A stretch of 43,732 bases of DNA, taken from Oligoflexia bacterium (GTDB lineage: Bacteria > Bdellovibrionota > Bdellovibrionia > JABDDW01). The DNA lies in the NCBI GenBank assembly GCA_034439615.1, contig JAWXAT010000047.1, positions 197,984 to 241,715 on the forward strand, read 5' to 3'. A program made the position numbers and the translations under genes. Numbering within the stretch: the stretch's first letter is position 1; each line of letters starts with the position of its first letter. Of this stretch, positions 3,173 to 42,623 are shown one piece after another. Below the pieces are notes generated by a model. It was not told where the DNA came from and did no database searches. It saw nothing but the letters and a program-made list of their open reading frames with translations.

Positions 3173-4183
3173 ATGAATACAAAGCTGATTCAAAAGTTAA
3201 TGAAAGAAGAATCAAAACACGTTGTCAGCGGACTTAAAAATCTCGTTTCAATCGAACGCAAAAACACGGGCGAAATTCTTCATTACTTCTATGTTATTCA
3301 AAAGCGAAGAATCTTTGCTGATTATGGATACTCAAATATTTATAAATTTGGAATAAAAGAGTTAGGCTACACCGAAGCTGAAACTCAAATCAGGGTTACA
3401 AGTTCGAGGCTTTTGGGTGAAATTCCAGAATTAGAATTAAAACTTAATGAAGGTAAGTTGTCTTTATCTACTGTCTCAATGGCAAATACTTTATTTAATC
3501 GAGAGAAAAAAGCAGAGAATGCGTTTACTTTAGATAAGAAAATCGAGGTTCTTAAGAATTTTGAGAATAAATCAGTAAAAGAATGCGAAAAAGAGATCTT
3601 TAAAGTTGCGACTGTGATCCCCGTTCCACCTGAAAAGGTCAGGCAAGTTTCAAATGAAACAGCACAAATGACGATCAATGTGCCTTTAGAGTTTTTAGAT
3701 GAAATTGAAACACTTAAAAATATTTATTCTAAAAGTCATCCTGGGATCACCACTGCTGAGCTTTTAGCTTTGCTTGTTAAAAAAGAGACTCAAAAGCTTG
3801 ATCCTGCTCGTGAGCCTCGAAAGTACAAGCAAACGAAGGTTCAAGATAATGTTCAAGGTGGGGGTCAAACTGATTTTCAAGCTAAAGTTCAACGCGGTGT
3901 TTCTGGTACGTACGAGAAATTCGGTGCGCCCACTGCTTTTCAAAAGCGACAAGTTTGGCAGAAGTATCAGTCCCAATGCTCATTTCAAACCTTTGATGGT
4001 AAACGCTGTGATTCAAAATATGGTCTTGAGATCGATCATATCCAGCCAAAAGCTTTGGGTGGGGACACTTCTCTCGAAAATCTCAGGCTTCTTTGCAAAG
4101 CCCATAATCAAAAAGCAGCCATTGATATATTTGGCTTCACGCATATGAATCGATTTATTAACGGTCATGAAGTGAGTACTTAG
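3173..4183 (+). CDS. HNH endonuclease-domain protein
   Basis: 336 residues. The C-terminal part holds an HNH fold: Cys269 and Cys279 as one metal-site pair, the catalytic-type Asp288-His289 in LEIDHIQP, Asn303 in LENLRLLC, then Cys308 and His311. The pair of cysteine knuckles around the HNH core is typical of HNH nucleases. The N-terminal 160 residues are a charged helical region of the sort found in DUF222-like HNH proteins, and residues 165-205 look like a short helical segment. Such proteins occur as families in Bdellovibrio-like genomes; their role is not established and they may be mobile. AGGGGG precedes the ATG. The gene stands alone in AT-rich DNA between unrelated neighbours, which fits an acquired element, but no terminal repeats or target duplication were seen. 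Confidence 0.8.
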   Translation: MNTKLIQKLMKEESKHVVSGLKNLVSIERKNTGEILHYFYVIQKRRIFADYGYSNIYKFGIKELGYTEAETQIRVTSSRLLGEIPELELKLNEGKLSLSTVSMANTLFNREKKAENAFTLDKKIEVLKNFENKSVKECEKEIFKVATVIPVPPEKVRQVSNETAQMTINVPLEFLDEIETLKNIYSKSHPGITTAELLALLVKKETQKLDPAREPRKYKQTKVQDNVQGGGQTDFQAKVQRGVSGTYEKFGAPTAFQKRQVWQKYQSQCSFQTFDGKRCDSKYGLEIDHIQPKALGGDTSLENLRLLCKAHNQKAAIDIFGFTHMNRFINGHEVST

Positions 4184-4566: not shown

Positions 4567-4660
4567 TGGAGGAGAGAGAGGGATTCGAACCCTCGATACG
4601 GCTTTTCAACCGTATAACGGTTTAGCAAACCGCCGCCTTCGGCCACTCGGCCACCTCTCC
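4567..4660 (-). tRNA. tRNA-Ser (anticodon GCU)
   Basis: Read on the minus strand the sequence folds as a class II tRNA. The acceptor GGAGAGG pairs with TCTCTCC (one G-U pair). The D arm has GCCGAGTGGCCGAAGGC. The anticodon stem closes the loop TTGCTAA, giving GCT and reading AGC/AGU codons. A long variable arm (TACGG with CCGTA) is present, as is a GAGGG-TTCGAAT-CCCTC T arm. CCA is encoded and followed by nine T. The base before CCA is T, whereas bacterial serine tRNAs usually have G there. Confidence 0.95.
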
Positions 4661-5798: not shown

Positions 5799-5860
5799 GC
5801 TTCTTGCTCTTTTTCAGGGGCAAGGCTATCTCCTTGGAGTATCTTTTTGGGAGGTTCACT

Positions 5861-6829
5861 ATGACTATTTTGAATTTGATTTTTAACAAAAGAAACGCGG
5901 TAGCTTTTGTTACCTTTTTTTTGAGTTTGCAACTGCAAGCAGCGCCGAAGCAAATTTGGATTTACACTTCGATTTATAAAGAATTTGCTGAGCCGATTAA
6001 AAAAGCGTTTGAAGCCAATAATCCTGATACTGAAGTTCAAATTTTTCAAGGTGGTTCAGAAAAAATTCAAGCCAAAGTTGAAGCTGAACTTATTGCACAA
6101 AAACCTCAAGCCGATGTCATTCTCACCTCTGACGCTTTTTGGAGCGCTGATCTCGGAAAACGAAATCTCGCACATTCTCATAAAGGAAAACTTACAGAGA
6201 CTAATTATCATTCATTGATGATTTTAGTAGCCCACAAAGATCTCCCACTTGATCAACGACCAAAAAGCTTTAGTGATCTTACAAAACCTCAATACAAAAA
6301 TCTTATTCAAACAGGAAGCCCGCTAGAATCAGGCACTATGTTTTCAACAGTGGCTTACCTAAGCCGAAAATATGGTTGGGATTATTTTAAAAAACTCAGA
6401 GAAAACAATGTAGCCTCCAGCGGGGGGAACTCTACAGTTATTCAAAAAATTGAATCTGGTGAGAAAAAAGTCGGATGGGTTCTTTTAGAAAATGCTTTGG
6501 CTTCGCAAAAACGTGGAAGCCCCATTGAAATTATTTATCCAATCGATGGAGCAATACCAATACCAAGTGTGCAAGTAATATTAAAAGACAGTAAACAAAA
6601 AGAAACGGCTGAAAAATTTGCTGAATTTATTTTATCAAAAGAAGGCCAAGAGCTATTGCGTAATGGTTTTATGTACAGTGTACGTAAAGACGTAACAGCT
6701 CCAGAGGGTGCAAAACCAATCAAAGAAGTTACAAAAAAATCCACCCCCTGGACAGATAAAATAATCGCTGAAGTGGCTGCCGACGCAAAGAATATTAAAA
6801 AACAATTTAGCCTTATTATTTTGGAATAA
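5861..6829 (+). CDS. ABC transporter periplasmic binding protein, iron/aminoethylphosphonate type
   Basis: 322 residues from the ATG at 5861, chosen for GGGAGG six bases upstream; the longer frame from 5804 has no ribosome site. A signal peptide ends near LQLQAA. The mature protein has the class II binding-protein pattern: WIYTSIYKEFAEPI at the start, ADVILTSDAFW, then IIYPIDGAIPIPSVQVILK near residue 235, and AEKFAEFILSKEGQELL. This matches the family that includes ferric-iron, thiamine and 2-aminoethylphosphonate binding proteins. The paired tyrosines typical of ferric-binding members are not evident, and the GAIPIPS stretch is closer to organic-substrate members. The permease follows after 3 bases. 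With eutBC downstream, ethanolamine or a related C2 amine is a plausible substrate; that is inference. Confidence 0.8.
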   Translation: MTILNLIFNKRNAVAFVTFFLSLQLQAAPKQIWIYTSIYKEFAEPIKKAFEANNPDTEVQIFQGGSEKIQAKVEAELIAQKPQADVILTSDAFWSADLGKRNLAHSHKGKLTETNYHSLMILVAHKDLPLDQRPKSFSDLTKPQYKNLIQTGSPLESGTMFSTVAYLSRKYGWDYFKKLRENNVASSGGNSTVIQKIESGEKKVGWVLLENALASQKRGSPIEIIYPIDGAIPIPSVQVILKDSKQKETAEKFAEFILSKEGQELLRNGFMYSVRKDVTAPEGAKPIKEVTKKSTPWTDKIIAEVAADAKNIKKQFSLIILE

Positions 6830-6832
6830 AAT

Positions 6833-8449
6833 TTGAATTGGATTTTCATTTTCCTATTAGGAGTTTTTTTTCTTGCTCCTCTGACTGGGCTTTTAAGTCA
6901 AGTCAATGCCGAGGTGTTGCGCGAAATCTATCAAAGCCCGTCATTTCTAAAATCATTGGGTGTGACTTTATCGTCTAGTATCTCTGCAAGTCTTATTTCA
7001 GTAATAATTGGAATGCTCTTCGCAAGACAATTTGCTCACAACCTGTGGCGCTTTAAGCGCCTCCAACGTCTTATGCTACTGATTCCATATCTTGTGCCTA
7101 ATTTTATCTTAGCCATTGCCTTTGTAGTCGCGTGGAACCCAACGACGGGGCTTCTTAATTATTGGGCAGTGTTTCCGGGCGGTCTCTATGGTCTTTTCGG
7201 AATGATTTTTCTATTTTCGATCACCCATATGCCGGTGGCATTTTTACTTTTTGAAGAAAAACTCAAACGCATTGATTCATCACTCAGAGAGGCAGCAAGA
7301 CTTTCTGGTGCTTCTAATTTTAAAGTTTTTTTAAAAATTGAATTACCTCTCTTACGCCCCGCGATCATCGGCGCCTGCGGACTTTGTTTTGCTCTTAATA
7401 TCTCAGCATTTGCAATACCTGCATGGATCGGTGCACCAGAAAAAGTTTATCCCCTCACCTACAAAGTTTATCAAGCTATCCAACTTGGCGGTCTTGAAGG
7501 TCTTCCCCAAGCTGCAAGTTATTCAGTTATTTTATTTTTACTTTCACTTATCCCGTTATTTTTAGGATTTTGGCTTCAAGGAAACGAAAAGAAATATGTT
7601 CTTTTATCTGGTAAAACGGCAAAAGAATCTTCAGAGAAACAAGGCATCATTGGTTTTTTAAGTTTTCAAATATGGTTTTTTATTTCACAAACGATATTTT
7701 GGATTGCTCCACTCATGTGTTTATTCCTAAGCACAATAGTTAAGCCCGGTTGCCTTCAATCTATTGGAGTTAAGTGCTTAAATGAAATATCTTTTAGCCA
7801 TTATAAATACGTAGTTTTTGATCTTGCCGAAACAAAAGCAGGACTTCATGGAAGTTTACTTTATGGTTCATTAAGCGCACTTGTCATTGTACTCATGGCA
7901 ATTGTGAGCCTTGCCCTATTTTCTAAAAAAAATGCGCAACTAAAAACGGTAGAGACTATTCTCACTATTCCCTTAGCCACGCCAGGGGCGATTATCGCAC
8001 TAGGTTTAATTGTTGTTTATTCAGGCAAATATGGCGTGAATCTTTACAACACCCCATGGATCATCATGACAGCCTTTATTATTAAACATGCTAGTCTTGC
8101 TTTTCAGCCGTTAAGAACAGGGCTTTCAAATATTTCCCCATCACTTTTTGAAGCCGCAAGACTCAGCGGCGCAAGTTCAGCCGGTGTTTGGAGAAAAATT
8201 GTATTACCGATATTAAGACCTGAGTATTTAGGTGGGTTTTTTCTCGTACTTATTCCAATATTAGGTGAATTAACAATGTCTGTGTTTTTAACGAGTCCTT
8301 CGTTTCAATCTATCGGAACAGTTTTATTTGATCTTCAAGATTACGCCGATCATGCGTCAGCCGGAGCATTAGCAATATTACTTGTTCTACTTATTTTAAG
8401 TTTAAATGAATTAAGTCGTTTTTTAAGTCGTGGAAAATTGGGGTACTAA
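6833..8449 (+). CDS. ABC transporter permease, two fused membrane domains
   Basis: 538 residues from a TTG start, 3 bases after the binding-protein stop. Two binding-protein-dependent permease domains are fused in one chain. Each has about six hydrophobic segments and an EAA loop that contacts the ATPase: EAARLSGAS at residues 153-161 and again from residue 440, each followed by a K-I-x-L-P-x-L-R-P motif. This fused form is typical of the iron/thiamine/aminoethylphosphonate transporter family (FbpB, ThiP, PhnV-type). It would form the inner-membrane channel for the importer. The ATPase gene starts on the very next base after the stop, so translation is probably coupled. The sequence does not reveal the substrate. 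Confidence 0.88.
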   Translation: MNWIFIFLLGVFFLAPLTGLLSQVNAEVLREIYQSPSFLKSLGVTLSSSISASLISVIIGMLFARQFAHNLWRFKRLQRLMLLIPYLVPNFILAIAFVVAWNPTTGLLNYWAVFPGGLYGLFGMIFLFSITHMPVAFLLFEEKLKRIDSSLREAARLSGASNFKVFLKIELPLLRPAIIGACGLCFALNISAFAIPAWIGAPEKVYPLTYKVYQAIQLGGLEGLPQAASYSVILFLLSLIPLFLGFWLQGNEKKYVLLSGKTAKESSEKQGIIGFLSFQIWFFISQTIFWIAPLMCLFLSTIVKPGCLQSIGVKCLNEISFSHYKYVVFDLAETKAGLHGSLLYGSLSALVIVLMAIVSLALFSKKNAQLKTVETILTIPLATPGAIIALGLIVVYSGKYGVNLYNTPWIIMTAFIIKHASLAFQPLRTGLSNISPSLFEAARLSGASSAGVWRKIVLPILRPEYLGGFFLVLIPILGELTMSVFLTSPSFQSIGTVLFDLQDYADHASAGALAILLVLLILSLNELSRFLSRGKLGY

Positions 8450-9418
8450 ATGGCACATCTAAAAATAAATAATCTTACGAAATCTTATGGAGCCAATAAA
8501 ATCCTCCACGGGATTTCGCTTGAAGTACAACAAGGAGAATTTGTTTCTTTTCTTGGACCTTCGGGGTGCGGAAAAACCACAACACTTAGATGTATCGCTG
8601 GCCTAGAAACACCAGATAGTGATAGCGGAGATATTACTGTTGGCGACAAAACTCTTTCGTCACAAAAAATTTTTGTAAAACCTGAAGATAGAAATCTTGG
8701 AATGGTTTTTCAAAGCTATGCAGTTTGGCCACACATGAATGTATTTGAGAATGTGGCATTCCCCTTGAGAATGAAAAAACGATTTAATGATCTTGGGCAT
8801 AATGAAATTTCAAAAATTGTCTCCGATTCATTAGCACTAGTTCATCTCTCAGGTCTTGAAAAACGATTTGGCAATGAGCTCTCAGGTGGACAACAACAAC
8901 GTGTAGCACTTGCAAGAGCTTTGGCGATGTCACCTCAGATACTTCTTCTTGATGAACCTTTAAGTAATTTAGATGTGATTTTGCGTGAAGAATTGAGAGC
9001 GGAAATTCAAAAACTTCAAAGACATCTCAAAATGACGACCATTCTTGTGACCCACGATCAACGTGAAGCCCTTTCATTGTCAGATCGTATATTTCTCATG
9101 AACAAAGGTAAAATCGAAGCTGTGGGTACACCTGAAGAACTCTACACACGTCCTCCAACGGTCTTTGCTGCAGAGTTTTTAGTGGGTGGGCAAACCTTTA
9201 ACGACAAATCAGGAAAGCCACAGAGTTTTATTCCACGACGCTGGAAACATTACCCAAAGCCTGGTTTAGGCAGTTATGAAACACAAGTGGTTTCAAGACT
9301 CTATTTAGGGTCAGAATATGAGTATTGGGTAGAAAGCTCCCAACTCCAGGGTACTGTTAAGTTTTTTTCAGCCGAAAAACTCGAACCAGGATCCAAAGTT
9401 TATCTCACCTACCAATGA
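8450..9418 (+). CDS. ABC transporter ATP-binding protein (FbpC/PotA-like)
   Basis: 322 residues with a complete ABC ATPase core: Walker A GPSGCGKTT (36-44), Q-loop Gln88 in VFQSYAVWP, signature LSGGQ (144-148), Walker B ILLLDEP (164-170), D-loop SNLD and H-loop His202 in LVTHDQREAL. The C-terminal 80 residues after YTRPPTVFAAEFLVG look like the regulatory TOBE-type domain of importer ATPases. It powers uptake by the preceding binding protein and permease, with which it is co-directional at zero spacing. The eutB start follows 39 bases later with no terminator visible between, so the importer and eut genes are probably one transcript. Confidence 0.92.
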   Translation: MAHLKINNLTKSYGANKILHGISLEVQQGEFVSFLGPSGCGKTTTLRCIAGLETPDSDSGDITVGDKTLSSQKIFVKPEDRNLGMVFQSYAVWPHMNVFENVAFPLRMKKRFNDLGHNEISKIVSDSLALVHLSGLEKRFGNELSGGQQQRVALARALAMSPQILLLDEPLSNLDVILREELRAEIQKLQRHLKMTTILVTHDQREALSLSDRIFLMNKGKIEAVGTPEELYTRPPTVFAAEFLVGGQTFNDKSGKPQSFIPRRWKHYPKPGLGSYETQVVSRLYLGSEYEYWVESSQLQGTVKFFSAEKLEPGSKVYLTYQ

Positions 9419-9457
9419 AATGAATTCTAGACAAAACCCTTTAAAATCATGTAATTA

Positions 9458-10828
9458 ATGCGGCTTGTGAAACTCTCAACTGAACTCAAAGGTACACATT
9501 ATAATTTTCAAACCGTCAAAGAGGTTTTGGCTAAAGCCAATGAACCAAAATCTGGCGATCAGATGGCCGGTCTTGCCGCAAAAGATGCTCGTGAAAGAGT
9601 CGCAGCCAAGATGGTTCTCTCTGATATTACACTTGGTGAATTACGCGAACATCCAGTTGTGCCCTATGAAAAAGATGAGATCACGCGCCTTGCTGAAGAC
9701 AGTTTAGATCTAGATGCTTTTAATAAAATTAAAAACCAAACTGTTTCACAATTTCGAGAATGGATACTTCAAGACACAGTGAGTGGCCAAAACATTCTTG
9801 ATATTTCTCCAGGCCTAACACCCGAGATGACCTCTGCAGTTACAAAACTCATGACTAATATGGATCTTGTCGTGGGTGGTCGAAAAATTCGCGTCGTAGT
9901 AAAATGTAATTCAACACTCGGGTTAGAAGGTCGCATTTCATCACGCCTTCAAACAAATCATCCCACCGACGATGTAAAAGGAATTATCGCCGGAGCCAAA
10001 GAAGGTCTATCTTATGGCACAGGTGATGCTGTCATCGGAATCAATCCATCAACTGATCGCGTTGATAGTTGTTATGATATTTTAAAAGCTACAAAAGATA
10101 TGATGGAGCGTTGGCGCATTCCGACTCAAAATTGTGTTCTTGCACACGTGACAACACAAATGCGTGCACTTGAAAAAGGGGCTCCACTTGATTTGATGTT
10201 TCAAAGTATCGGCGGGAGCCAAATTTCAAACGAAGAATTTGGTGTAAGCATAAAACTACTTGATGAAGCCTATGACATGACACTTAAAAAAGGCACAGCA
10301 CGTGGTGATAATGTAATGTATTTTGAAACCGGTGAAGGTACAGCCTTAAGCGCAAACGGACATCATGGCGCTGATCAATTAACCATGGAAGCAAGATCTT
10401 ATGCACTCGCACGTCGTTATAAACCATATCTTGTAAATTCAGTTGTCGGATTTATTGGCCCTGAATATCTCTATGATTCAAAACAAATCATTCGCGCAGG
10501 GCTCGAAGATCACTTCATGGGGAAACTCATGGGGATCAGCATGGGTTGTGATGATTGTTACACTAACCACGCGGTGGCTGATCAAAATGATCAAGAAGAT
10601 TTAGCAGTACTCTTGGCTGCAGCCGGAGTGAATTATCTCATGAGTCTTCCCATGGGGGATGACGTCATGCTTAATTATCAATCAACAAGTTTTCATGACA
10701 ACGCAACACTGAGAACAATTTTTGGATATAAACCAACACCCGAATTTGAAACGTGGATGGAACGCATGGGTATTTGGGAAAACGGCCGCCTCACAGCAAA
10801 AGCCGGTGACCCCAGTATTTTCATGTAA
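9458..10828 (+). CDS. eutB: Ethanolamine ammonia-lyase, large (catalytic) subunit
   Basis: 456 residues, near the usual 453. With EutC and adenosylcobalamin it splits ethanolamine into acetaldehyde and ammonia. Residues known to hold the substrate in the E. coli enzyme are all present with a constant +3 offset: Arg163 and Gln165 (SSRLQTN), Asn196 (AVIGINP), Glu290 (YFETGEG) and Asp365 (SMGCDDCYTNH). Other family blocks are VLAHVTTQ, VGFIGPEYLYD, IIRAGLEDHFMGKL and LPMGDDVMLNYQ. The ATG has no strong ribosome site. No cobalamin riboswitch could be recognised in the 39 bases upstream. eutC starts 10 bases after the stop. Confidence 0.97.
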   Translation: MRLVKLSTELKGTHYNFQTVKEVLAKANEPKSGDQMAGLAAKDARERVAAKMVLSDITLGELREHPVVPYEKDEITRLAEDSLDLDAFNKIKNQTVSQFREWILQDTVSGQNILDISPGLTPEMTSAVTKLMTNMDLVVGGRKIRVVVKCNSTLGLEGRISSRLQTNHPTDDVKGIIAGAKEGLSYGTGDAVIGINPSTDRVDSCYDILKATKDMMERWRIPTQNCVLAHVTTQMRALEKGAPLDLMFQSIGGSQISNEEFGVSIKLLDEAYDMTLKKGTARGDNVMYFETGEGTALSANGHHGADQLTMEARSYALARRYKPYLVNSVVGFIGPEYLYDSKQIIRAGLEDHFMGKLMGISMGCDDCYTNHAVADQNDQEDLAVLLAAAGVNYLMSLPMGDDVMLNYQSTSFHDNATLRTIFGYKPTPEFETWMERMGIWENGRLTAKAGDPSIFM

Positions 10829-10838
10829 GTGAGAACTT

Positions 10839-11816
10839 GTGACTGAAATAGATAAAACTCAATTATCAGAATTGGTGCGAAAAGTTCTCGCTGAAGTATT
10901 AAGCGATAAGGTCACACACACTGAGCCTGTTTTAGAAAAAAAGCCAACCAGAAACTTAGCTCAAGAAAATATTGCGCGCTGGTTAGGTCATAGTTTGCAA
11001 AAAACTCAAACTCGTAACTCCACAGCTTTAAAACTACCAATCATCACATCACAAGATGATGCGAAGGCAAAAACTCAAACTCCTTCTGATAATGAGAATT
11101 TAATTCCTAATCCCAGAAAACCTGAAAAACTAACGGCCGCTTTAGAACATTCTCCCGCACGACTTGGTGTTTGGCGTGCGGGTACTCGTTACCTCACAAG
11201 TGTAGCTTTAAAATTACGAGCTGATCATGCCATTGCAAAAGATGCCGTGTATGCTGAAATGCCAGCTCACTTTGCTGAAAAAAATAATTGGGTGCCGCTT
11301 ACAACCAAGGCCACCAATAAAGAGAAGTTTTTACTACGCCCTGATTTGGGTCGACAACTCGATGATAAGAGCCTTTTACTAGTTCGCGAAAAAGCGATTA
11401 AGAACCCTGATATTCAAATAACAGTGGCTGATGGTTTGAGTTCATGGGCGGCAGAAAGATTTGCCCCTGCGATGGTTGCAGAACTTCAAAAACTTTTTTC
11501 TGAAGCTAAAATGACTGTGGGCACAATTTATTGCGTGAGATTTTCGCGCATTGCCGTTCAAGATGTCATTGGTGAAGCTGTGGGTGCAAAAGTAAGTATG
11601 ATTTTATTGGGTGAACGCCCAGGCCTTGGCACCGGCGACTCATTATCAAATTATATGATCTACGGGCCAAAAGTGGGCACTGTAAATGCCAATAAAAGTA
11701 TGATTTCAAATATTCACGCTACAGGACATACTCCCATAGATGCCGCACGCTTGACTTTTAGCATGGTAAAGAAAATGTTTGAACAAGGTTGCAGTGGAGT
11801 TAAATTAAAAATTTAA
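10839..11816 (+). CDS. eutC: Ethanolamine ammonia-lyase, small (cobalamin-binding) subunit
   Basis: 325 residues from a GTG start. The C-terminal two-thirds match EutC: SPARLGVWRAGTRYLT, DHAIAKDAV, then IAVQDVIGEAVGAKVSMIL, GERPGLGTGDSLSNYMIYGP and ISNIHATGHTPIDAARL, which build the B12 site and the contact with EutB. The protein is about 30 residues longer than the E. coli form. The extra length lies in residues 25-95, a linker rich in Thr, Gln, Lys and Asn. An amphipathic start (DKTQLSELVRKVLAEVL) could be a microcompartment-targeting helix, which is notable because eutL follows 40 bases downstream. Confidence 0.95.
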   Translation: MTEIDKTQLSELVRKVLAEVLSDKVTHTEPVLEKKPTRNLAQENIARWLGHSLQKTQTRNSTALKLPIITSQDDAKAKTQTPSDNENLIPNPRKPEKLTAALEHSPARLGVWRAGTRYLTSVALKLRADHAIAKDAVYAEMPAHFAEKNNWVPLTTKATNKEKFLLRPDLGRQLDDKSLLLVREKAIKNPDIQITVADGLSSWAAERFAPAMVAELQKLFSEAKMTVGTIYCVRFSRIAVQDVIGEAVGAKVSMILLGERPGLGTGDSLSNYMIYGPKVGTVNANKSMISNIHATGHTPIDAARLTFSMVKKMFEQGCSGVKLKI

Positions 11817-11856
11817 TGTCAGCCCCTCATGGAGCTGTAAGCTTTAAGGATACACT

Positions 11857-12513
11857 ATGGAACTCGTACCGTTAAAACCAAAAGTACTCAGCCGCCAAGT
11901 AATTCATCAAATCACTCCACAACTGGCAAAACAGTATGGCGTGAAAAATTCTAAACATGAAAGTCTGGGTCTTATTACTTGTGACTTTGATGACGCCCTT
12001 TATGTCGCACTTGATGAAGCCACCAAACACGCCAATATCGAAGTGATCTATGCGAAATCATTTTATGCAGGCAGCGGGCACTCGAGTGGCCCACTTTCAG
12101 GTGAAGTCATCGGCGTGATTTCAGGTAGTGATCCTTCTGAAGTAAAAGAGGGGCTTGATGCTACTGAAGATTGTCTTTTAAAAGAGGCTTGGTTTTACAC
12201 ATTACTTCCTGAGCAAAAAACCAACTTCTTTCCCCACGTAGTCTCAAGTGTAGGGCACTATCTTTCAAAAGTTGCAGAGGTGCCCGTTGGTTCTTCACTT
12301 GCCTATCTTATTGCTACACCAATAGAAGCTATGATTGGCCTTGATGCCGCCATGAAAGCTGCGCGAGTAGAACTTGCCAAATTTTATGGTCCACCAACTG
12401 AAACAAACTTTGCTGGGGGGCTCTTGAGCGGTGATCAAACAGAATGTGAACAAGCTGCACGAGCATTTGCTGAAGCTGTGGCTCAAGTTGCTCAAAACCC
12501 TATTACTAGATAA
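11857..12513 (+). CDS. eutL: Microcompartment shell protein EutL (tandem BMC domains)
   Basis: 218 residues, almost exactly the EutL length, with two circularly permuted BMC domains in tandem that form a pseudohexameric trimer with a gated pore. Family blocks are SLGLITCDFDDALYVALDEATK, shortened here to SLGLITCDFDDALYVALDE (about 36-54), EVIYAKSFYAGSGHSSGP, GLDATEDCL, FPHVVSSVGHYLS, SLAYLIATPIEAMIGLDAA and the PPTETNFAGGLLSG end. AAGGAT precedes the ATG. It is the last eut gene of the run, and no other shell gene (EutM, EutN, EutK, EutS types) is visible in the window. A full shell would need genes elsewhere; otherwise EutL may have a different role, such as an ethanolamine-gated scaffold. 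Confidence 0.95.
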   Translation: MELVPLKPKVLSRQVIHQITPQLAKQYGVKNSKHESLGLITCDFDDALYVALDEATKHANIEVIYAKSFYAGSGHSSGPLSGEVIGVISGSDPSEVKEGLDATEDCLLKEAWFYTLLPEQKTNFFPHVVSSVGHYLSKVAEVPVGSSLAYLIATPIEAMIGLDAAMKAARVELAKFYGPPTETNFAGGLLSGDQTECEQAARAFAEAVAQVAQNPITR

Positions 12514-34524: not shown

Positions 34525-35628
34525 CTATCTTAAAAAGTCAAGCAAACTGGGCTGAAGTAACTTGCCAGATGTTTGCAGCGTAGCCTTCAAAGTATTTTCG
34601 TTTTTTGTTATATCTGTGAACACTTCAAAGGCATCGGCATCCTCTATTGAACTCAAGAGGCTAGCATCTTCAACTTTTTGTTTTCCTAGCCCTAAGCTGG
34701 TATTTTCTAACGAGGCAACGCGAGATCCTACTTGTGAACGTAGCAAAACGACTTGTTCATGTGCGCCATCAAGACGCTCTAATGTTTCTTGAATAGCGAC
34801 TGTGTCATTTGCACGTAAACCTGCTGACAGTGCATTTAAGGTGGTGAAAATATTTTCTCCCTCAGCATTTTCTTTAGGAGATTCTATGGTTTCATTTGCT
34901 TTTAAACTTTCGCGACGTTTTGACTCACGAGCGCTATCTGAACTGGCAGCTGACACCGAGTCATTTTCATTTGCAGGGCCACGTATTTCAATATCTTCTG
35001 GCTCTTTTGAAGCTGGAATTGGTGGATAATTAGGAGTTGTCGATCCCCTTCTTTCAGATGGTACTAGAGCAAGTTTACTATTCTTACCTAGGAAAACCTG
35101 ATCACCGGGTAAATTAATAGTGGTAAAAACACCCTTATTTACTTCAATTTTCATTCCACCCTCATCACCCCGATAATTTCCATCATTATCAAATGGAGAA
35201 TGAGTGGTCTTGTATCCACCAAAAATAAATCGCTCGCCTACTTTGCGATTGCCGATATGAACCATATCTCGAGTGAGTTGTTCAATTTCTGTGGCAACTG
35301 CAAGGCGAGCTGATGCGTTTGTGCTCGCATCACTGGCTTGGCCAAGTGCTAATTCTTTTGCACGTGCTAATACTTCTGTGGCCTCACCTAACGCAAGATC
35401 TGTGTAGCTTAAGAAGTTTCTTGCGATGTCGATATTTTTAACAAATTGTTCTGAACCAACTTTGTCAGTACGAATTCCAAGCATGCGAGATGTTCCAACA
35501 GGATCGTCAGAAGGTTTGGTAATGCGCTTCATTGACGATGCTTGATTTTGAAGGTCAGCCATCTCTGAACGATTTTTAGCTATATTGCCCTTCACTTGCT
35601 CGTAGTTCATATTATTACTGACGCGCAC
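34525..35628 (-). CDS. flgL: Flagellar hook-associated protein 3 (hook-filament junction)
   Basis: 367 residues from a GTG with GAGG 6 bases upstream. FlgL joins FlgK to the flagellin filament. The start RVSNNMNYEQ and the helices with SSMKRITKPSDDPVGTSRML and VEDASLLSSIEDADAFEVFT-like C-terminal sequence are characteristic. The central part from about residue 185 to 250 is an unusual polar, low-complexity stretch rich in Ser, Glu, Pro, Arg and Asn, longer than in most FlgL proteins, and could be a surface loop. flgK lies 8 bases upstream, in one operon. Confidence 0.92.
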   Translation of the reverse strand: MRVSNNMNYEQVKGNIAKNRSEMADLQNQASSMKRITKPSDDPVGTSRMLGIRTDKVGSEQFVKNIDIARNFLSYTDLALGEATEVLARAKELALGQASDASTNASARLAVATEIEQLTRDMVHIGNRKVGERFIFGGYKTTHSPFDNDGNYRGDEGGMKIEVNKGVFTTINLPGDQVFLGKNSKLALVPSERRGSTTPNYPPIPASKEPEDIEIRGPANENDSVSAASSDSARESKRRESLKANETIESPKENAEGENIFTTLNALSAGLRANDTVAIQETLERLDGAHEQVVLLRSQVGSRVASLENTSLGLGKQKVEDASLLSSIEDADAFEVFTDITKNENTLKATLQTSGKLLQPSLLDFLR

Positions 35629-35636
35629 TTATGACC

Positions 35637-37067
35637 TCATAATCTTTTTAAATTTAAAACGGTATCAAACATTTCATCGGCGACTTTAATAAGTCGCGCA
35701 GATGCGTCGTATGCTTTTTGAAATTTGACCATGTCCGTTGTTTCTTCATCAAGGCTTACGCCACTGATTCCTTCACGAACATTTTTCAATTGCTCGACTA
35801 TGTTTTTTTGATGCTCTAAAGCCATTGTATTTTTGCGAGTTAGAACCGCAAACTCACCAACGATGCCATTGAAGTAGTCATCTACAGAAGATGTTCCATT
35901 TTGAAAGATTGCTTTTGTCTGAACAGCTGCAATGGCGTTAGCGATTCTATTATCACCAGGGCTTCCTGGTTGAAATGCGCCAGCAATGTAGCCTGAATCT
36001 TCTTCGATTTCTTCATTGAGTTTAATATTTAGAGCTGCATTGAATTCATCTTGAACGGGCTCAAAGAAATTTCTGCCTGTTTGATCGTACCGGTCATAAC
36101 CTTGTCTATGTAATGCATTGATTTCATCAGTTACACTAAATGCGATGTGATCTAATTTGCTATGAAGATCATTGATGATACTGTCACGAGCATCAAGGGC
36201 TCCGCCGATGTGACCACCTTTAAGTTGATTGGTAACTAAAAACTCTGAACCTTTTGGTCCACTCCTGAAGAAAACATCAATATTGCCTTCGCGCTTAATA
36301 CCATCAGCTGGAGTCGACTTAGCAATGAGTTCATTGAATTCATAGCCACTCACAAGCAGAGCGTTATTTCCTGCCGTAATAGCGATTTTTCCGTTATCAC
36401 CTTCAGCGTAACGAATATTAACGAGCTCACCGAGTTTTTTCAAAAGAAGGTCACGCCTATCGCGTTCATCGTTAGCGGGAGCTCCTGAAACTTCAACCAT
36501 TTGGATTTTTTCATTAAGTGTGGCGATCTCTTTTGAATAACCATTGATCTGTGAGACTTGCGCACGAATCTGAGCATCAACATCTTTTTGAATAGAATCG
36601 AGTTGATTATGAATACGATGAAAGTCTTCGGTAAGAATTTTAGCACTTTCTTTTACAAGAGCGCGTGTCGCTTGTGACTCGGGATTATTTGCAAATTCTT
36701 TAAAAGCGTTGAAGAAATTTGCCAAAAATCTGTTCAGACCTTTATTAATACTTTCGTTGTAAACTTGTTCAACCCGGTCGAGTGAACCCTGACGACCACT
36801 TGAGGTTCCCAGCTTCGTTGTTTCATCTTGAATTTGTTTATTGAGATAACTATTAACGACACGAGTAACGCCGACAGTTTTTGAACCTTGGCCTATTCTT
36901 AATTTTCCCGAGCCAATGGGCTCAGCGGATTGTTGTTCAATGCGCTGACGAGTGTACCCTTCAGTGTTGGCATTAGCGATGTTATGAGATGTTGTTTGCA
37001 AAGCAGTTTGGCTATTTGCCATAGCTTGCTTGCCAACAGTCATTATTGAACCAATGCGTGGGGACAT
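35637..37067 (-). CDS. flgK: Flagellar hook-associated protein 1
   Basis: 476 residues. FlgK is the first hook-filament junction protein. The flagellar rod/hook N-terminal motif is QTALQTTSHNIANANTEGYT, the D1 helices contain FFNAFKEFANNPES and the C-terminal motif is SLDEETTDMVKFQKAYDASA with DEMFDTVLNL. AAGGA lies close to the ATG. The gene has flgN upstream (42 bases) and flgL downstream (8 bases). Length is near the shorter end of the family, with no large inserted domain. Confidence 0.95.
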   Translation of the reverse strand: MSPRIGSIMTVGKQAMANSQTALQTTSHNIANANTEGYTRQRIEQQSAEPIGSGKLRIGQGSKTVGVTRVVNSYLNKQIQDETTKLGTSSGRQGSLDRVEQVYNESINKGLNRFLANFFNAFKEFANNPESQATRALVKESAKILTEDFHRIHNQLDSIQKDVDAQIRAQVSQINGYSKEIATLNEKIQMVEVSGAPANDERDRRDLLLKKLGELVNIRYAEGDNGKIAITAGNNALLVSGYEFNELIAKSTPADGIKREGNIDVFFRSGPKGSEFLVTNQLKGGHIGGALDARDSIINDLHSKLDHIAFSVTDEINALHRQGYDRYDQTGRNFFEPVQDEFNAALNIKLNEEIEEDSGYIAGAFQPGSPGDNRIANAIAAVQTKAIFQNGTSSVDDYFNGIVGEFAVLTRKNTMALEHQKNIVEQLKNVREGISGVSLDEETTDMVKFQKAYDASARLIKVADEMFDTVLNLKRL

Positions 37068-37109
37068 CCTGTCCTTTCAACAACCCGCAATCATTGCGAG
37101 CTCTAAAAC

Positions 37110-37610
37110 TTAAACTTCTTTGCTAACGAAGTGGCCTGCAACTTCGTTTTTTTTCACTTCACCCGATTGAGCATATGTAGATCGAGGTTGAAGTGTATCT
37201 TTAATTGCACCGAGAGCCCCATTCACCATCTTCAATGACGATTGAATGAGAGCCTCGTTGTTTTCATTGATTTCTTTTATGCGCCTAATGAGTAAATCTA
37301 ATGTTGAATGTATGCTGCGCAATTTTGAATTATACGGATCAACAACTTTTGAAGCTATTTCTAAAAGTCTCGGACTCTCGGTACTTGCACCAACAGCCGC
37401 AGCTAAGTCACGGGCTGCTTTTTCACGCACGCGCTCTAGGGCTCTGATTTTAAGAACCATCGCTTCTTTTGATTTATTGTTTTCATTGAGTTCGTCTATT
37501 TTTGCCGAGATGAGAACTTCTTTCTCACGGCGTACGAGATCAAGCAGAGCCCTATAGACTTTAATTTCGTCTTCGAGAACGATTTCTAAACTTTTATAGG
37601 CCTCATGCAT
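37110..37610 (-). CDS. flgN: Flagellar export chaperone FlgN
   Basis: 166 residues, almost entirely helical and charged, with heptad-like Leu, Ile and Val spacing (LVRREKEVLISAKIDELNE, MVLKIRALERVREKAARDLA). FlgN protects FlgK and FlgL before export. The family is poorly conserved in sequence; the assignment rests on the coiled-coil character, length and position directly before flgK and after flgM. AAGGAAG precedes the ATG. Confidence 0.82.
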   Translation of the reverse strand: MHEAYKSLEIVLEDEIKVYRALLDLVRREKEVLISAKIDELNENNKSKEAMVLKIRALERVREKAARDLAAAVGASTESPRLLEIASKVVDPYNSKLRSIHSTLDLLIRRIKEINENNEALIQSSLKMVNGALGAIKDTLQPRSTYAQSGEVKKNEVAGHFVSKEV

Positions 37611-37653
37611 TTTCGCTTCCTTGCAAATTGCTCTTAGGCTTTAGAGAATTATT

Positions 37654-37992
37654 TTATCCGTCTGTCTTCGTTAAAAAATCATTGTATGCGTGTTCATCAA
37701 CCATCTTGTCTGCGGTTTTTGCTGAGTCAGGTTTATATTCACCTTTTGCAATCATAGCTTTGAACTTTGCAACTTTTGCTTCGTCAACATCAGGAACGCT
37801 ATTCACAACATCTTTAACTTTTTTCATGTCTTGTGCGCGTTCAGAAAGTTTTACTTTTGCTGATGCAAGTTGATCTGATGACGAAACATTCCCAGTTTGT
37901 TGGGCTGAGCTTGCTGCACCTTTTCTTTTTGAGCCTTGTGCTTTGGCTGTTCCATCTAACTGATCAATAGAAGTTTTATCGGTTACCTTCAT
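37654..37992 (-). CDS. flgM: Anti-sigma-28 factor FlgM
   Basis: 112 residues. The N-terminal half is polar and likely disordered, suitable for export through the flagellum. The C-terminal sigma-binding region is recognised by VKDVVNSVPDVDEAKVAKFK followed by AMIAKGEYKPDSAKTADKM, close to the family pattern (R/K-x-x-I-x-x-G-x-Y-x-x-D). FlgM holds the flagellar sigma factor inactive until the hook is complete. A perfect AAGGAGG lies 5 bases before the ATG. It sits between flgJ and flgN. Confidence 0.9.
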   Translation of the reverse strand: MKVTDKTSIDQLDGTAKAQGSKRKGAASSAQQTGNVSSSDQLASAKVKLSERAQDMKKVKDVVNSVPDVDEAKVAKFKAMIAKGEYKPDSAKTADKMVDEHAYNDFLTKTDG

Positions 37993-38019
37993 AGTAGCCT
38001 CCTTAGTATATACTTTATT

Positions 38020-38742
38020 TTATTCGGTTTTCTGCTCTCTACGCAACCCGAAAAACACCTGAGCACCTTCTCCACGTTGAGATGCCGGGAGCTCTGCTAT
38101 AACTGATCCCGCATCAACCCTTTGTCCATTTTTTACGCGGTTGTTTCCTGAATGTACCATTTGTGTCACCAGGCCTTGGTCGTGTTTCACAACAACCATC
38201 TGACGACCATCTTCTAGAGCTGCAGATTGAAGAACAATCCCAGGGTAAGGGCTGTGCAAATCTACACGCTCGGGTAAAGGTTCAACAGATTTTAAAACAT
38301 ATCCACCTTCAGATGCTTTCGCCATAAAAAGACTGCCGTCTGATTTTCTCAAAATATCTCGAGGGCGATCATTCTGAGCTGATCCCCCCGGAGGTAATCT
38401 TAAAGCTTCTCCAGGACTCTTACGGGGAAGAGTAGCAGCGTTTCCGTATTTATCTTGAAGCTGATCGTAAATAATATCAGCCAACCCGATACCGCCACGC
38501 TCCACCCAACTATCTGCATATTTATTATCAAGTTCTTCACGGAAAATTCTTTCTCCCATTCCCTCGGGAACAAGTTCGTTTCCCGGAACTGTCTTTCGCA
38601 TTTCAGAAATCATTTGTCGGATAAATTGATTTTCAAAATTTTGCGCAGCTTCGAGCATGCGCGGATCACGTTGATCTTTTTTTGATTGAGCCCGATGTAG
38701 CGATGACTGCGTAACATCGAGTGGTTTTTCTTTGATCTTCAT
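38020..38742 (-). CDS. flgJ: FlgJ-type rod protein fused to a degenerate M23 (LytM-like) domain
   Basis: 240 residues. Residues 26-98 match the rod-cap domain of FlgJ: LEAAQNFENQFIRQMISEMR, ERIFREELDNKYADSWVERG and GLADIIYDQL. FlgJ guides rod assembly. In gamma- and betaproteobacteria the C-terminus is a glucosaminidase; here residues 160-236 look like an M23 peptidase fold instead: SPYPGIVLQSAALEDGRQ, VVVKHDQGLVTQMVHSG and VKNGQRVDAGSVIAELP. His187 and His197 are in the usual places, but HxxxD is missing and the final HxH is VFF, so it should not bind zinc or cleave peptide bonds. It may bind peptidoglycan or a partner hydrolase. Confidence 0.82.
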   Translation of the reverse strand: MKIKEKPLDVTQSSLHRAQSKKDQRDPRMLEAAQNFENQFIRQMISEMRKTVPGNELVPEGMGERIFREELDNKYADSWVERGGIGLADIIYDQLQDKYGNAATLPRKSPGEALRLPPGGSAQNDRPRDILRKSDGSLFMAKASEGGYVLKSVEPLPERVDLHSPYPGIVLQSAALEDGRQMVVVKHDQGLVTQMVHSGNNRVKNGQRVDAGSVIAELPASQRGEGAQVFFGLRREQKTE

Positions 38743-38900
38743 TTAACCACACGATTTAAAAAAAAAGGGGCGATGGACCAATGAGTTCGCGCTTCCTGCG
38801 CCTCATTCTGCAAAATGGGCATCGAGCCAATCCTTGGCTACGAGCCGACATCCTGCACCTGTTTCCTGCAAGAAACCAGTATTCAGCCTATCCATGGCAA
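38743..38900. other. Noncoding segment between flgI and flgJ with short hairpins
   Basis: This part of the 265-base flgI-flgJ gap is richer in G and C than its surroundings and holds three hairpins (listed separately). A T-run of nine on the minus strand at 38758-38766 lies shortly before flgJ. flgI and flgJ are usually adjacent, so the gap looks inserted. Confidence 0.45.
38780..38876. repeat. Cluster of three short inverted repeats
   Basis: AATGAG/CTCATT with inner GCGC/GCGC (38780-38807), AGCCAA/TTGGCT (38825-38839) and GTTTC/GAAAC (38861-38876). TCCTGC occurs three times within the cluster, which resembles a small extragenic palindromic element. Confidence 0.45.
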
Positions 38901-39011
38901 TCAACCTATGGCCCACCTAACCCCCGACTGCACACGCAACACATCCATGTGTCGCGATACTATAAATTTATTGTAATCCATTTTCATAAAAACACCGATA
39001 ACCATTTTCAT
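38901..39011 (-). CDS. Possible 36-residue ORF coupled to flgI
   Basis: The ATG overlaps the flgI stop (ATGA) and GAGG lies 4 bases upstream, so translation could be coupled. The first 16 residues hold an 8-residue internal repeat (MKMVIGVF, MKMDYNKF) that comes from a 24-base duplication. No similarity is recognised. It could equally be a chance ORF in noncoding DNA that separates flgI from flgJ. Confidence 0.25.
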   Translation of the reverse strand: MKMVIGVFMKMDYNKFIVSRHMDVLRVQSGVRWAIG

Positions 39012-39015
39012 AAAA
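38978..39015. repeat. 14-bp direct repeat, 24-base period
   Basis: CCATTTTCATAAAA occurs at 38978 and again at 39002, the second copy overlapping the end of flgI. Confidence 0.65.
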
Positions 39016-40072
39016 CCTCAAGCTCGCCTTGCAATGCGCCGGCTGCTTTTATGGTTTGCAAAATTGTGATCAGGTCTTTTGGCGTAACGCCCAACGCGTT
39101 CAACGCTTTTACAAGATCTCCAACACTTGCTGACTTTTGAAAAAGTGCAACGCGATTTCCCTTGGTTTTACCAGATGTTGAAGCGGGCCCGCGAATTTCT
39201 GGACTCTCTTCTTGATTTGAACTTGTGGCCTTCACTTGTACAGAAAGATTTCCGTGACTGATTGCAACTGTTTGAATTTGCACACGTTCGCCGATTACCA
39301 CAGTGCCAGTGCGTTCATTCACAACAACGCGCGCTTTTGTATCACTACTCACGTCTAGGTTTTCAATACTAGCCATGAGTTCAACGGCATCGCCTTCATA
39401 ATTAAAAGGAACCACAATATCAATTGTGCCTGCATCTTTTGCAGATGCAAATTTTCCACCCAAGTCTTGATTTATGGTCTTAACCACTCGAGATGCGGTT
39501 GTGAAATCAGCATCAAACAAAGTGAGTCTAAACATTTTGCGATTTGAAAAATCACTCGCCGAATCTGTTTCAATCATCGCTCCATGGGGAACACGAGCAA
39601 CTGTAGGGTGACCTTTTTCACTGGTTCCACCACCAGTTGATGGGAGCCCCACAAGTACTCCACCTTGAGCTACAGCGTAAACTTGCTGATCTGAAGCACG
39701 TAGAGGTGTTTGAAGAAGTGTTCCACCCACCAAACTTGAAGCGCTTCCGATGCTATTAATAGTGACATCAATTTTATTACCAGCACGCGCAAATGCTGGC
39801 AGTGTTGCCGTCACCATAACAGCAGCGACATTTTTACTTTCAATATCAGCTGTACTAAGTTTCATTCCCATTGTGTCAAGCATGCGGGCAATACTTTTTG
39901 AAGTGAATTCAGCTTTACCGTCACCGGTTCCGTTAAGACCCACTACGAGACCATAACCAACTAACTGATTCTCTCGAACACCACGAATGTTTGTAATATC
40001 TTTTAGTCGTGCTGCTTCAGCAACACCACTTATCAAAATCATGAAAAACATTATTTTAGCGGATGATATCAT
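39008..40072 (-). CDS. flgI: Flagellar P-ring protein
   Basis: About 354 residues from the ATG at 40072, chosen because AAGGA lies 8 bases upstream; ATG at 40081 lies within that region and overlaps flgH further. A signal peptide (MISSAKIMFFMILISGVAEA) directs it to the periplasm, where it forms the ring around the rod in the peptidoglycan layer. Family blocks include RLKDITNIRGVRENQLVGYG, LVVGLNGTGDG, ARMLDTMGMKLS, VMVTATLPAFARAGNKIDV and VVNERTGTVVIGERVQI. The start overlaps the flgH stop region and the stop overlaps a small ORF. Confidence 0.95.
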   Translation of the reverse strand: MISSAKIMFFMILISGVAEAARLKDITNIRGVRENQLVGYGLVVGLNGTGDGKAEFTSKSIARMLDTMGMKLSTADIESKNVAAVMVTATLPAFARAGNKIDVTINSIGSASSLVGGTLLQTPLRASDQQVYAVAQGGVLVGLPSTGGGTSEKGHPTVARVPHGAMIETDSASDFSNRKMFRLTLFDADFTTASRVVKTINQDLGGKFASAKDAGTIDIVVPFNYEGDAVELMASIENLDVSSDTKARVVVNERTGTVVIGERVQIQTVAISHGNLSVQVKATSSNQEESPEIRGPASTSGKTKGNRVALFQKSASVGDLVKALNALGVTPKDLITILQTIKAAGALQGELEVL

Positions 40073-40874
40073 TTCTTGCATCCTTGCTTGAAGCTATTAA
40101 ATCAAACTTTCCATCAATGATTTTTGTCGAAGAAATATTATCTGCCGTGATGTCATCTGCACGAAGATTTCCGGTAACAATTATTTTATATTCTCTTCTG
40201 CCAATTAATACAGTCTGTTGCCCTTTAACACGATACGAGCCATCAGAGTTTTTCTCAACGATACGACAGGGCACTTGATCAAACTTTGCATCGTCTTTTT
40301 CTTTTGTGTTGTCAGCTGAATTTTTATCATTATCTTTATTTTCATCAGTATTGTTAGCATCATTGGCTTGCGCCGGTGGAGGTGGTGGGGTTCCTTGTCC
40401 ACGATCAGGCGTTGGCTTACCTGCAGTTGCAACTCTGCGAATAATTTTTACTTGAGGTTTATCAAATTTTGCCCAGGCTGTTCTAATTAATTTTATTTTT
40501 GTCGAAAGATTATCGCCAGTGCGACCCTCAATGTTGACATTTACAACATCACCAAGAACCCTTAAATTATTCTGACTGAATAAATATGACCCCTGGCCTT
40601 CTTTTCTCCAGAGCGATCCAGAATTTTCTTCTAGTGATTGTTCATCTGAAAAATTTTCTTTTGTAACACGTTTGTACTTACGCTCTTTACCCGTCATGAC
40701 ATTTGGCTGTGATGCAAAACTAGGTGATTGTGGCCCTGGTGGCTTAGCCGGTGCACTCGAAGTTCCGCCACCAACAAGGTTCTTCCATTTTCGACCAAGA
40801 CTTGCACACCCCACAAGATTTACAAGTAGGGCTGACAAAATAAGAATGGAGAAAATATTTTTAATAGTTAACAC
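40056..40874 (-). CDS. flgH: Flagellar L-ring protein (lipoprotein)
   Basis: About 272 residues from the GTG at 40874, which has AGGGG 8 bases upstream; a GTG at 40883 is too close to that site. The lipobox is LVGC (LLVNLVGCASL). Core features are SLWRKEGQGSYLFSQNN, LGDVVNVNIEGRTGDNLSTK and the end YKIIVTGNLRADDITADN followed by ISSTKIIDGKFDL. FlgH forms the outer-membrane ring. Between residues about 155 and 200 there is an insertion of Pro, then Asn, Asp and Lys (PPPPPAQANDANN onward) that ordinary FlgH lacks. The C-terminus is shorter than usual. flgA overlaps at the start, flgI at the end. Confidence 0.88.
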   Translation of the reverse strand: MLTIKNIFSILILSALLVNLVGCASLGRKWKNLVGGGTSSAPAKPPGPQSPSFASQPNVMTGKERKYKRVTKENFSDEQSLEENSGSLWRKEGQGSYLFSQNNLRVLGDVVNVNIEGRTGDNLSTKIKLIRTAWAKFDKPQVKIIRRVATAGKPTPDRGQGTPPPPPAQANDANNTDENKDNDKNSADNTKEKDDAKFDQVPCRIVEKNSDGSYRVKGQQTVLIGRREYKIIVTGNLRADDITADNISSTKIIDGKFDLIASSKDARNDIIR

Positions 40875-41820: not shown

Positions 41821-41825
41821 TTCTC

Positions 41826-42611: not shown

Positions 42612-42623
42612 TTAATCACCTCA

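What the first reader, a model, noticed from the sequence alone, without database searches (positions are those of the whole stretch)
5861..12513. Ethanolamine ammonia-lyase genes joined to their own ABC importer instead of an ethanolamine permease
The sequence shows a binding protein, fused permease and ATPase followed by eutB, eutC and eutL, all in one direction with gaps of 3, 0, 39, 10 and 40 bases. Known eut operons import ethanolamine by diffusion or the permease EutH; an importer of the iron/aminoethylphosphonate family in this position is not the standard arrangement. The binding protein lacks the obvious paired tyrosines of ferric-binding members. The inference is high-affinity scavenging of ethanolamine or a closely related C2 amine, for example from membrane phospholipid breakdown. 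This is the strongest candidate for an undescribed system here.
Basis: partly seen in the sequence, partly recalled or inferred. Interest (0 to 1): 0.72.

Follow-up and report, generated by a model that had tools for sequence, protein, structure and literature searches.

The report
ABC importer beside ethanolamine-degrading genes
A bacterium that appears related to Bdellovibrio keeps its ethanolamine-splitting enzyme and one microcompartment shell protein in the same gene row as an ATP-driven importer, which may bring in a fragment of membrane lipids; other parts of its microcompartment are encoded elsewhere.

Summary
Window 5861-12513 encodes a binding protein, fused permease, ATPase, EutB, EutC and EutL in one direction (gaps 3, 0, 39, 10, 40). 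A second genus of the family (G001) shows the same order across two contigs. A third (G002) keeps the flanking pyrD and rsmG with about 540 bp in place of all six genes, so importer and eutBCL came or went together. The ethanolamine carriers Eat and EutH were not found in G000 or G001, whereas four of 15 inspected EutB loci of the phylum have Eat nearby. Other shell genes and an acylating aldehyde dehydrogenase lie on another contig. eutBCL resembles a published "EUT module" satellite, but without a recognisable EutA and with an importer added.

Ferric and sugar-selecting residues are gone, but phosphate-gripping residues of AfuA/P5PA are kept, with Glu at a selectivity position. Similar pockets occur in two genomes without detected EutB, and in four relatives a more distant importer follows a glycerophosphodiesterase. 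A phosphate-bearing ethanolamine source fits better than free ethanolamine, but this is unproven. ABC genes of other families also lie near eutBC on plasmids. Verdict: a new variant of a known kind, of moderate interest.

The parts
5861..6829 (+). Periplasmic solute-binding protein, 322 aa, AfuA/P5PA/FbpA/PhnS2-like fold; predicted oxyanion site S66, S157-G158-T159, N190; E210-N211 at the selectivity position
   Evidence: residue mapping by sequence alignment, with residue roles from passages of PMC4546632 and PMC8427247
6833..8449 (+). Fused ABC permease, 538 aa, two BPD_transp_1 stretches; best NCBIfam match PhnU2, far below its cut-off
8450..9418 (+). ABC importer ATPase, 322 aa; best NCBIfam match PhnT2 (316.1, cut-off 457.7)
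9458..10828 (+). EutB, ethanolamine ammonia-lyase large subunit, 456 aa
10839..11816 (+). EutC, ethanolamine ammonia-lyase small subunit, 325 aa, with an N-terminal helix resembling the N-terminus of E. coli EutC, read as an encapsulation peptide
   Evidence: the N-terminal alignment there is not significant; the encapsulation reading is by eye
11857..12513 (+). EutL-type microcompartment shell protein, 218 aa

Best explanation
This is one functional row of genes: an ABC importer feeding an ethanolamine ammonia-lyase satellite module of a split microcompartment. Shown: gene content and order; recurrence in a second genus; absence of the whole block between the same flanks in a third; separate shell and aldehyde-dehydrogenase genes on another contig; no detected Eat or EutH. 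Inferred: the binding protein captures a small phospholipid-headgroup product in the periplasm, more likely one carrying phosphate plus an amine (phosphoethanolamine or glycerophosphoethanolamine) than free ethanolamine. The permease and ATPase carry it in. A hydrolase encoded elsewhere, not sought in this genome, releases ethanolamine. EutBC, targeted into the shell by the EutC N-terminal helix and supplied through EutL, makes acetaldehyde and ammonia. The CoA-acylating aldehyde dehydrogenase of the distant locus makes acetyl-CoA. If the ligand is free ethanolamine, the hydrolase step drops out and the rest stands; the 0.5 given here covers both versions.
For: Same order in G001. Empty counterpart site in G002, where EutB was not found and the best SBP match is 29% identical. 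Eat not found in G000 or G001 although strong in G118, G119 and G304; EutH not found. BMC genes at G000:C10 and G001:C66. SBP model mean pLDDT 93.6, matching sugar-phosphate, PLP-phosphate and ferric binding proteins among others. AfuA S37 and T150 map to S66 and T159, and P5PA S147-G148-T149 and S183 to S157-G158-T159 and N190, while AfuA H205 and D206 map to E210 and N211. GDPD directly upstream of the homologous importer in 4 of 14 class genomes with a strong SBP match (E <= 1e-50), G000 included.
Against: Only two genomes show the linkage, and pyrD and rsmG are conserved there too, so shared descent explains part of it. The importer clade also occurs in BJ13 (L004) and G022, where EutB was not found, with similar pockets. 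Among 19 other EutB-bearing genomes of the phylum only 5 have a strong SBP homologue. No hydrolase for a phosphorylated ligand is next to the cluster. EutA matches stayed below cut-off (23.6 bits in G000 and 25.2 in G001, cut-off 27), and no PduO-type adenosyltransferase reached cut-off, so lyase upkeep is unexplained. The same fold family also includes cation binders: spermidine/putrescine-binding protein matched weakly (E 6e-4) and a thiamin-binding protein is in the structure list. The pocket mapping is by sequence alignment at about 24% identity, without ligand modelling; AfuA Thr60, Tyr103 and Gln269 were not mapped.
Confidence: 0.5

Rival explanations
1. The importer is specific for free ethanolamine and replaces Eat/EutH. 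(This lies inside the 0.5 of the best explanation; about 0.2 is left for readings not listed.)
For: Position next to eutB, where Eat sits in G118, G119 and G307; Eat and EutH not found in G000 or G001; acidic E210 could hold an ammonium group; cation binders exist in the wider fold family.
Against: Oxyanion-site residues are retained. Similar pockets occur in genomes where EutB was not found. The top-ranked relatives with named ligands bind phosphorylated compounds, citrate-metal or iron.
Confidence: 0.2
2. The importer serves something unrelated to ethanolamine (2-aminoethylphosphonate as P or N source, glycerol-3-phosphate, citrate-metal, other) and lies beside eutBCL by chance insertion or operon crowding between pyrD and rsmG.
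For: The importer family is widespread in the class without EutB: of 13 other genomes in the relatives set with a strong SBP match, EutB was not found in 12. The run also includes housekeeping pyrD and rsmG. GDPD is the neighbour in four relatives. The best NCBIfam names are aminoethylphosphonate transporters, below cut-off.
Against: G002 lacks both parts at the same place; both are kept together in two genera although the proteins differ by 15 to 40%; Eat and EutH were not found.
Confidence: 0.27
3. The importer is a ferric iron transporter.
For: Fold matches to HitA and FbpA, HitA being Foldseek's first rank.
Against: Recalled FbpA iron ligands H9, E57, Y195, Y196 align to Y39, S90, E210 and no tyrosine: 0 of 4 kept. 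AfuA, once also annotated as ferric, binds sugar phosphates (PMC4546632, passages).
Confidence: 0.03

Closest known systems
EUT-module satellite loci of HO, SPU3 and SPU6 microcompartments (Sutter et al. 2021, PMC8217296; section on satellite loci and other passages seen)
   Same: EutB, EutC and an EutL-type shell protein encoded away from a main shell locus; here the main locus has three BMC-P-like genes, and its BMC-H and CcmP-like BMC-T match HO-5815 and HO-5816 entries among the best in the PDB
   Different: No EutA match over cut-off in the genome; an ABC importer precedes eutB; the formal type of the main locus was not assigned
Eat-eutBC and Eat-eutBCL arrangements
   Same: A membrane carrier gene beside eutB; seen in G118, G119 and G307 of the phylum, and near eutBC on plasmid stretches L141, L144, L145, L149, L151
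   Different: Those carriers are single APC-type permeases (L098 protein over the TIGR00908 cut-off); here it is a three-gene ATP-driven importer
AfuABC and P5PAB importers (sugar phosphates; pyridoxal phosphate)
   Same: Among the closest solved structures with known organic ligands; phosphate-binding residues align
   Different: Sugar-selecting H205, D206, E229 are not kept; about 24% identity
Aminoethylphosphonate importers PhnS2/U2/T2, AepXVW
   Same: Best NCBIfam matches for all three importer proteins; AepX is in pfam13343, which the SBP also matches
   Different: All below the curated cut-offs; aepXVW is typically beside phnWX or phnWAY (PMC8316502, passages), which are not in this cluster
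Other ABC genes near eutBC on plasmids
   Same: Thioclava: Ugp-like ABC cassette (below the Ugp cut-offs) with a metallophosphoesterase, divergent from eutBC-eat; Agrobacterium (ABC permease and ATPase of unstated substrate), Rhizobium (amino-acid type) and Tsukamurella (branched-chain type) upstream on the same strand
   Different: Different annotated ABC types; no EutL in these stretches' gene tables, which PLSDB calls incomplete; alphaproteobacteria and an actinomycete

Membership tests
Ethanolamine ammonia-lyase EutBC | Both subunits over curated family cut-offs | tested here: met
   NF011649 662.9 (554) and NF003971 246.7 (230); PF06751 and PF05985 far above cut-off
Ethanolamine ammonia-lyase EutBC | Active-site residues of E. 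coli EutB (recalled: R160, Q162, N193, E287, D362) | tested here: met
   Motifs RLQ at 163-165, GINP at 194-197, ETG at 290-292, GCDDC at 363-367, a constant offset of three, within stretches aligned to solved 2qez; the residue list is recalled
EutL shell protein | Curated EutL models | tested here: met
   NF011934 283.4 (198); TIGR04502 297.1, just under 300; solved EutL 4edi matches at 3.3e-63
EUT-module satellite locus (Sutter 2021) | EutB, EutC and EutL distal from the main shell locus | tested here: met
   Other shell genes at G000:C10, module at C47
EUT-module satellite locus (Sutter 2021) | EutA reactivase in the module | tested here: not met
   No EutA gene in the window cluster; PF06277 matches in G000 and G001 all below cut-off (best 23.6 and 25.2 bits, cut-off 27)
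EUT-module satellite locus (Sutter 2021) | Main locus of HO, SPU3 or SPU6 type | tested here: inconclusive
   BMC-H: best natural match 5djb/HO-5815, after a tandem fusion construct; CcmP-like BMC-T: 6n07 and 5v74 (HO-5816) best; three BMC-P-like genes; no typing tool or type tree available
Ferric-binding protein FbpA | Iron ligands H9, E57, Y195, Y196 (recalled) | tested here: not met
   Aligned residues Y39, S90, E210 and no tyrosine
AfuA sugar-phosphate binder | H205, D206, E229 (PMC4546632) | tested here: not met
   E210, N211, about P233
AfuA/P5PA-type phosphate site | S/T37, S-G-T 147-150, S183/G185 near the phosphate (PMC8427247, passages) | tested here: met
   S66, S157-G158-T159, N190 by alignment; S66, S157, G158, T159 and N190 are the same in the first 16 rows of A1. 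AfuA Thr60 was not mapped
Aminoethylphosphonate importer PhnS2 | NCBIfam equivalog cut-off | tested here: not met
   TIGR03261 115.2, cut-off 392.75
Aminoethylphosphonate importer | Binds 2-aminoethylphosphonate; phnWX or phnWAY in the genome | not tested
   No binding assay possible; phn genes were not searched genome-wide
Ethanolamine importer | Binds and transports ethanolamine | not testable with these tools
   Needs a purified protein or a transport assay

The most novel reading that the evidence does not exclude
An ATP-driven importer for a phosphorylated ethanolamine source (phosphoethanolamine or glycerophosphoethanolamine) is wired in one operon to an ethanolamine-lyase satellite module, letting a Bdellovibrio relative scavenge headgroups from other cells' membranes and pass them into a Haliangium-type microcompartment that may also process other substrates.
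Probability: 0.28. Interest if true: 0.65.

Novelty: new variant of a known kind. Interest (0 to 1): 0.45.

Why it matters
A review of bacterial ethanolamine use names diffusion and the transporters Eat and EutH for uptake (PMC5821096, passages). An ABC importer tied to the lyase and one shell protein would be a scavenging route for membrane-derived headgroups. It would also give a concrete case of a satellite EUT module that brings its own supply line to a shell encoded elsewhere. The binding protein could add a specificity class to a transporter family in which at least one member, AfuA, was first taken for an iron transporter (PMC4546632, passages).

Tried and rejected
Standard eut operon with the permease swapped: rejected, because other shell genes and the aldehyde dehydrogenase are on another contig. 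Ferric transporter: rejected on residues. Hexose-phosphate transporter: selector residues not kept. Cobalamin riboswitch control: the gathering-threshold Rfam scan of the window found only one tRNA. Promoter- and terminator-like patterns were about as frequent as in shuffles (15 against 18.6; 9 against 8.7), so transcription units were not inferred from them; one weak terminator-like site lies in the pyrD-SBP gap (5821-5836). Association of the importer with EutB across the phylum: 5 of 19 other EutB-bearing genomes have a strong SBP homologue against 12 of 57 near relatives without an EutB match; the samplings differ, so no claim is made. Searching plasmids with the SBP gave only matches under 60% identity (433 records, 30 listed) and was not followed up. 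A PDB search with the GDPD-linked G033 binding protein gave the same kinds of iron and sugar-phosphate binders. Ligand docking was not done: no model coordinates were in the script box. Papers: in the listings of searches, and in the passages of the papers opened, I saw no report of an ABC importer for ethanolamine. The listings were capped (for example 20 of 110), most listed papers were not opened, and only an open-licence library is held.

Full report
What is there. The binding protein most likely starts at the ATG at 5861, behind a GGGAGG stretch; the mechanical ORF begins at a TTG at 5804. The row is flanked on the same strand by pyrD (62 bp) and rsmG (26 bp), so it need not be a closed transcription unit. 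The window lies in a 3.0 Mb, 70-contig assembly of 96% completeness. The organism's name is not given. One class member (G033) appears to be a Bdellovibrionaceae assembly: its contig has the same length as that of L006 and an identical GDPD gene. I infer that the window is from the phylum Bdellovibrionota.

Is the linkage conserved? EutB was found in 2 of 59 genomes of the relatives set, G000 itself and G001. G001 belongs to another genus of the same family. Its contig C116 (3.8 kb) holds pyrD, SBP, permease and the first ATPase residues; its contig C117 begins within the ATPase gene and continues eutB-eutC-eutL-rsmG. The natural reading is one locus broken by assembly. G002, the third family member in that set, has pyrD and rsmG as neighbours with about 540 bp between them, holding a small opposite-strand ORF without a Pfam match, and none of the six genes. 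Its best SBP match is 29% identical. Importer and eutBCL were therefore gained or lost together at one site. This is a single event in a small sample, and the conserved flanks show that vertical descent alone keeps much of the order.

Where is the rest of the pathway? A BMC-domain search of G000 and G001 found shell genes at G000:C10 and G001:C66, besides EutL. G000:C10 encodes three BMC-P-like proteins, a PduT-like BMC-T, an aldehyde dehydrogenase over the NCBIfam PRK15398 cut-off, an EutM-like BMC-H (132.9, cut-off 133) and a CcmP-like BMC-T; apart from the dehydrogenase these names are below their curated cut-offs. The CcmP-like BMC-T and the BMC-H match entries named HO-5816 and HO-5815, of Haliangium ochraceum, among the best in the PDB. 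G001:C66 has the same set. In the distant relative G304, homologues of EutBCL, BMC-H, one BMC-P, the aldehyde dehydrogenase and both BMC-T proteins lie together, with a protein that looks PduS-like by eye and an Eat-type permease. The window cluster is thus one half of a split system. Sutter et al. 2021 (PMC8217296; the satellite-loci section and passages seen) describe EUT modules of EutA/B/C plus an EutL-type protein as satellites of HO, SPU3 and SPU6 compartments. The present cluster matches except that no EutA reached cut-off and an importer is attached. EutC begins with a helix that HMMER aligns, without significance, to the E. coli EutC N-terminus, and the distant aldehyde dehydrogenase begins similarly by eye; I read both as encapsulation peptides.

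Is the importer in the place of a known carrier? EutB was found in 21 of 368 genomes of the phylum. I examined the neighbourhood in 15 of the 21, the window included, with the importer genes, GDPD and one Eat protein as queries (some stretches end at contig ends, that of G278 after 5 kb). An Eat-type permease adjoins eutB in G118, G119 and G307 and lies about 5 kb beyond eutL in G304. A distant APC protein (24%) is upstream of eutB in G326. The ABC importer of this finding is next to eutB only in G000 and G001. G353 has a lone 27% binding-protein homologue 2 kb from eutL on the other strand. In the remaining seven none of these queries matched a carrier. Eat was not found in G000 or G001 at E <= 0.001 (six genomes searched), and EutH had no match in either (the same six). 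Both assemblies are about 95-96% complete, so absence is probable, not certain.

What does the importer carry? The binding protein model is confident (pLDDT 93.6). Its best structural and sequence matches include HitA/FbpA (iron), AfuA and VcA0625 (glucose-6-phosphate), P5PA (pyridoxal phosphate), MctA (citrate-metal), Salmonella stm0429 and an Agrobacterium protein, 3c9h, with no ligand stated in its title. Weaker matches include cation binders: spermidine/putrescine-binding protein (E 6e-4) and thiamin-binding protein. None of four recalled FbpA iron ligands is kept. AfuA's sugar selectors H205, D206 and E229 are not kept, but its phosphate contacts S37 and T150 align to S66 and T159. P5PA's S147-G148-T149 and S183 align to S157-G158-T159 and N190. 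E210 and N211 occupy the positions of AfuA H205 and D206. A site that grips an oxyanion and faces a glutamate suits a small compound with both phosphate and amine; this step is inference from alignment.

Evidence that cuts across a dedicated ethanolamine role. In the tree the binding protein forms a clade (support 100/100) with G001, BJ13 (L004) and G022. Neither BJ13 nor G022 gave an EutB match. At 41 positions that I chose around the pocket motifs, the window differs from eut-linked G001 at 3, from BJ13 at 4 and from G022 at 7 (D91, F93, H117, S191, W206, D229, P233). A second supported clade, of eleven, keeps S66, SGT, GGNS and EN but has RR for Q195-K196 and Q, mostly S, N for I234-P235-S236. 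In four members of that clade (G003, G020, G033, G045), of 14 class genomes with a strong SBP match including G000, a glycerophosphodiester phosphodiesterase sits directly upstream (Pfam GDPD checked for the G033 protein only). L006 is the same contig as the G033 case and is not counted twice; L042, L054 and L055 lie close to contig ends. Five other EutB-bearing genomes with strong SBP matches had the importer away from eutB and no GDPD match in the 14 kb taken. This suggests an ancestral role in uptake of phospholipid breakdown products, with eutBCL added in one family.

Precedents. Twelve plasmid regions around EutB were read, of 40 listed and 149 matching records. Five carry an annotated eat gene (L141, L144, L145, L149, L151). 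In Thioclava (L141) a Ugp-like ABC cassette with a metallophosphoesterase diverges from eutBC-eat. In Agrobacterium (L142), Rhizobium (L146) and Tsukamurella (L149) ABC genes of other kinds lie upstream on the same strand, and three further stretches have ABC genes on the other strand (L145, L147, L150). Such genomes are rich in ABC genes (recalled), so some of this is chance. ABC-lyase proximity as such is not unique; the family of importer, the EutL link and the phylum are what differ.

Conclusion. I commit to an importer that feeds an ethanolamine-lyase satellite module, with a phosphate-bearing headgroup fragment more likely than free ethanolamine, at about even odds overall.

Noticed in passing
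L048, L049, L051, L052 (G020, G033, G045, G003): A glycerophosphodiester phosphodiesterase lies directly upstream of the homologous ABC importer in four class relatives; the G033 protein matches Pfam GDPD and, below cut-off, the NCBIfam model PRK11143.
   Followed up: partly
L092 7772-11626 (G000:C10) and L093 (G001:C66): A compact seven-gene shell locus with three BMC-P-like genes and one acylating aldehyde dehydrogenase; no signature enzyme was evident by eye among the ORFs listed.
   Followed up: partly
L044 6764-9356 (G022): The binding protein and fused permease lack an adjacent ATPase gene; the next gene is on the opposite strand.
   Followed up: no
L105 3925-4890 (G353): A lone, divergent binding-protein homologue without a permease match nearby, about 2 kb from eutBCL on the other strand.
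   Followed up: no
L118 1926-2486 (G002): A small ORF with a possible signal peptide (by eye) occupies the pyrD-rsmG interval where the importer and eutBCL are absent; no Pfam match.
   Followed up: partly
L084, L085, L087-L090 (G273, G275, G285, G238, G276, G072): EutB homologues of 34-43% identity in open frames of about 700-750 aa, possibly EutB fused to another domain; Sinorhizobium plasmids have a 33% type, 782 aa in L143.
   Followed up: no
window 4570-4660 (-): A single tRNA match upstream of pyrD, after an ORF (3173-4183) that looks like an HNH endonuclease by eye.
   Followed up: no
window 34525-43556 (-): ORFs that look like flagellar hook, rod, P-ring, L-ring and FlgA genes in one run, read by eye from the translations.
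   Followed up: no
L141 1642-6680 (Thioclava plasmid): A Ugp-like ABC cassette and a metallophosphoesterase diverge from eutBC-eat: a possible independent pairing of phosphodiester uptake with ethanolamine breakdown.
   Followed up: partly
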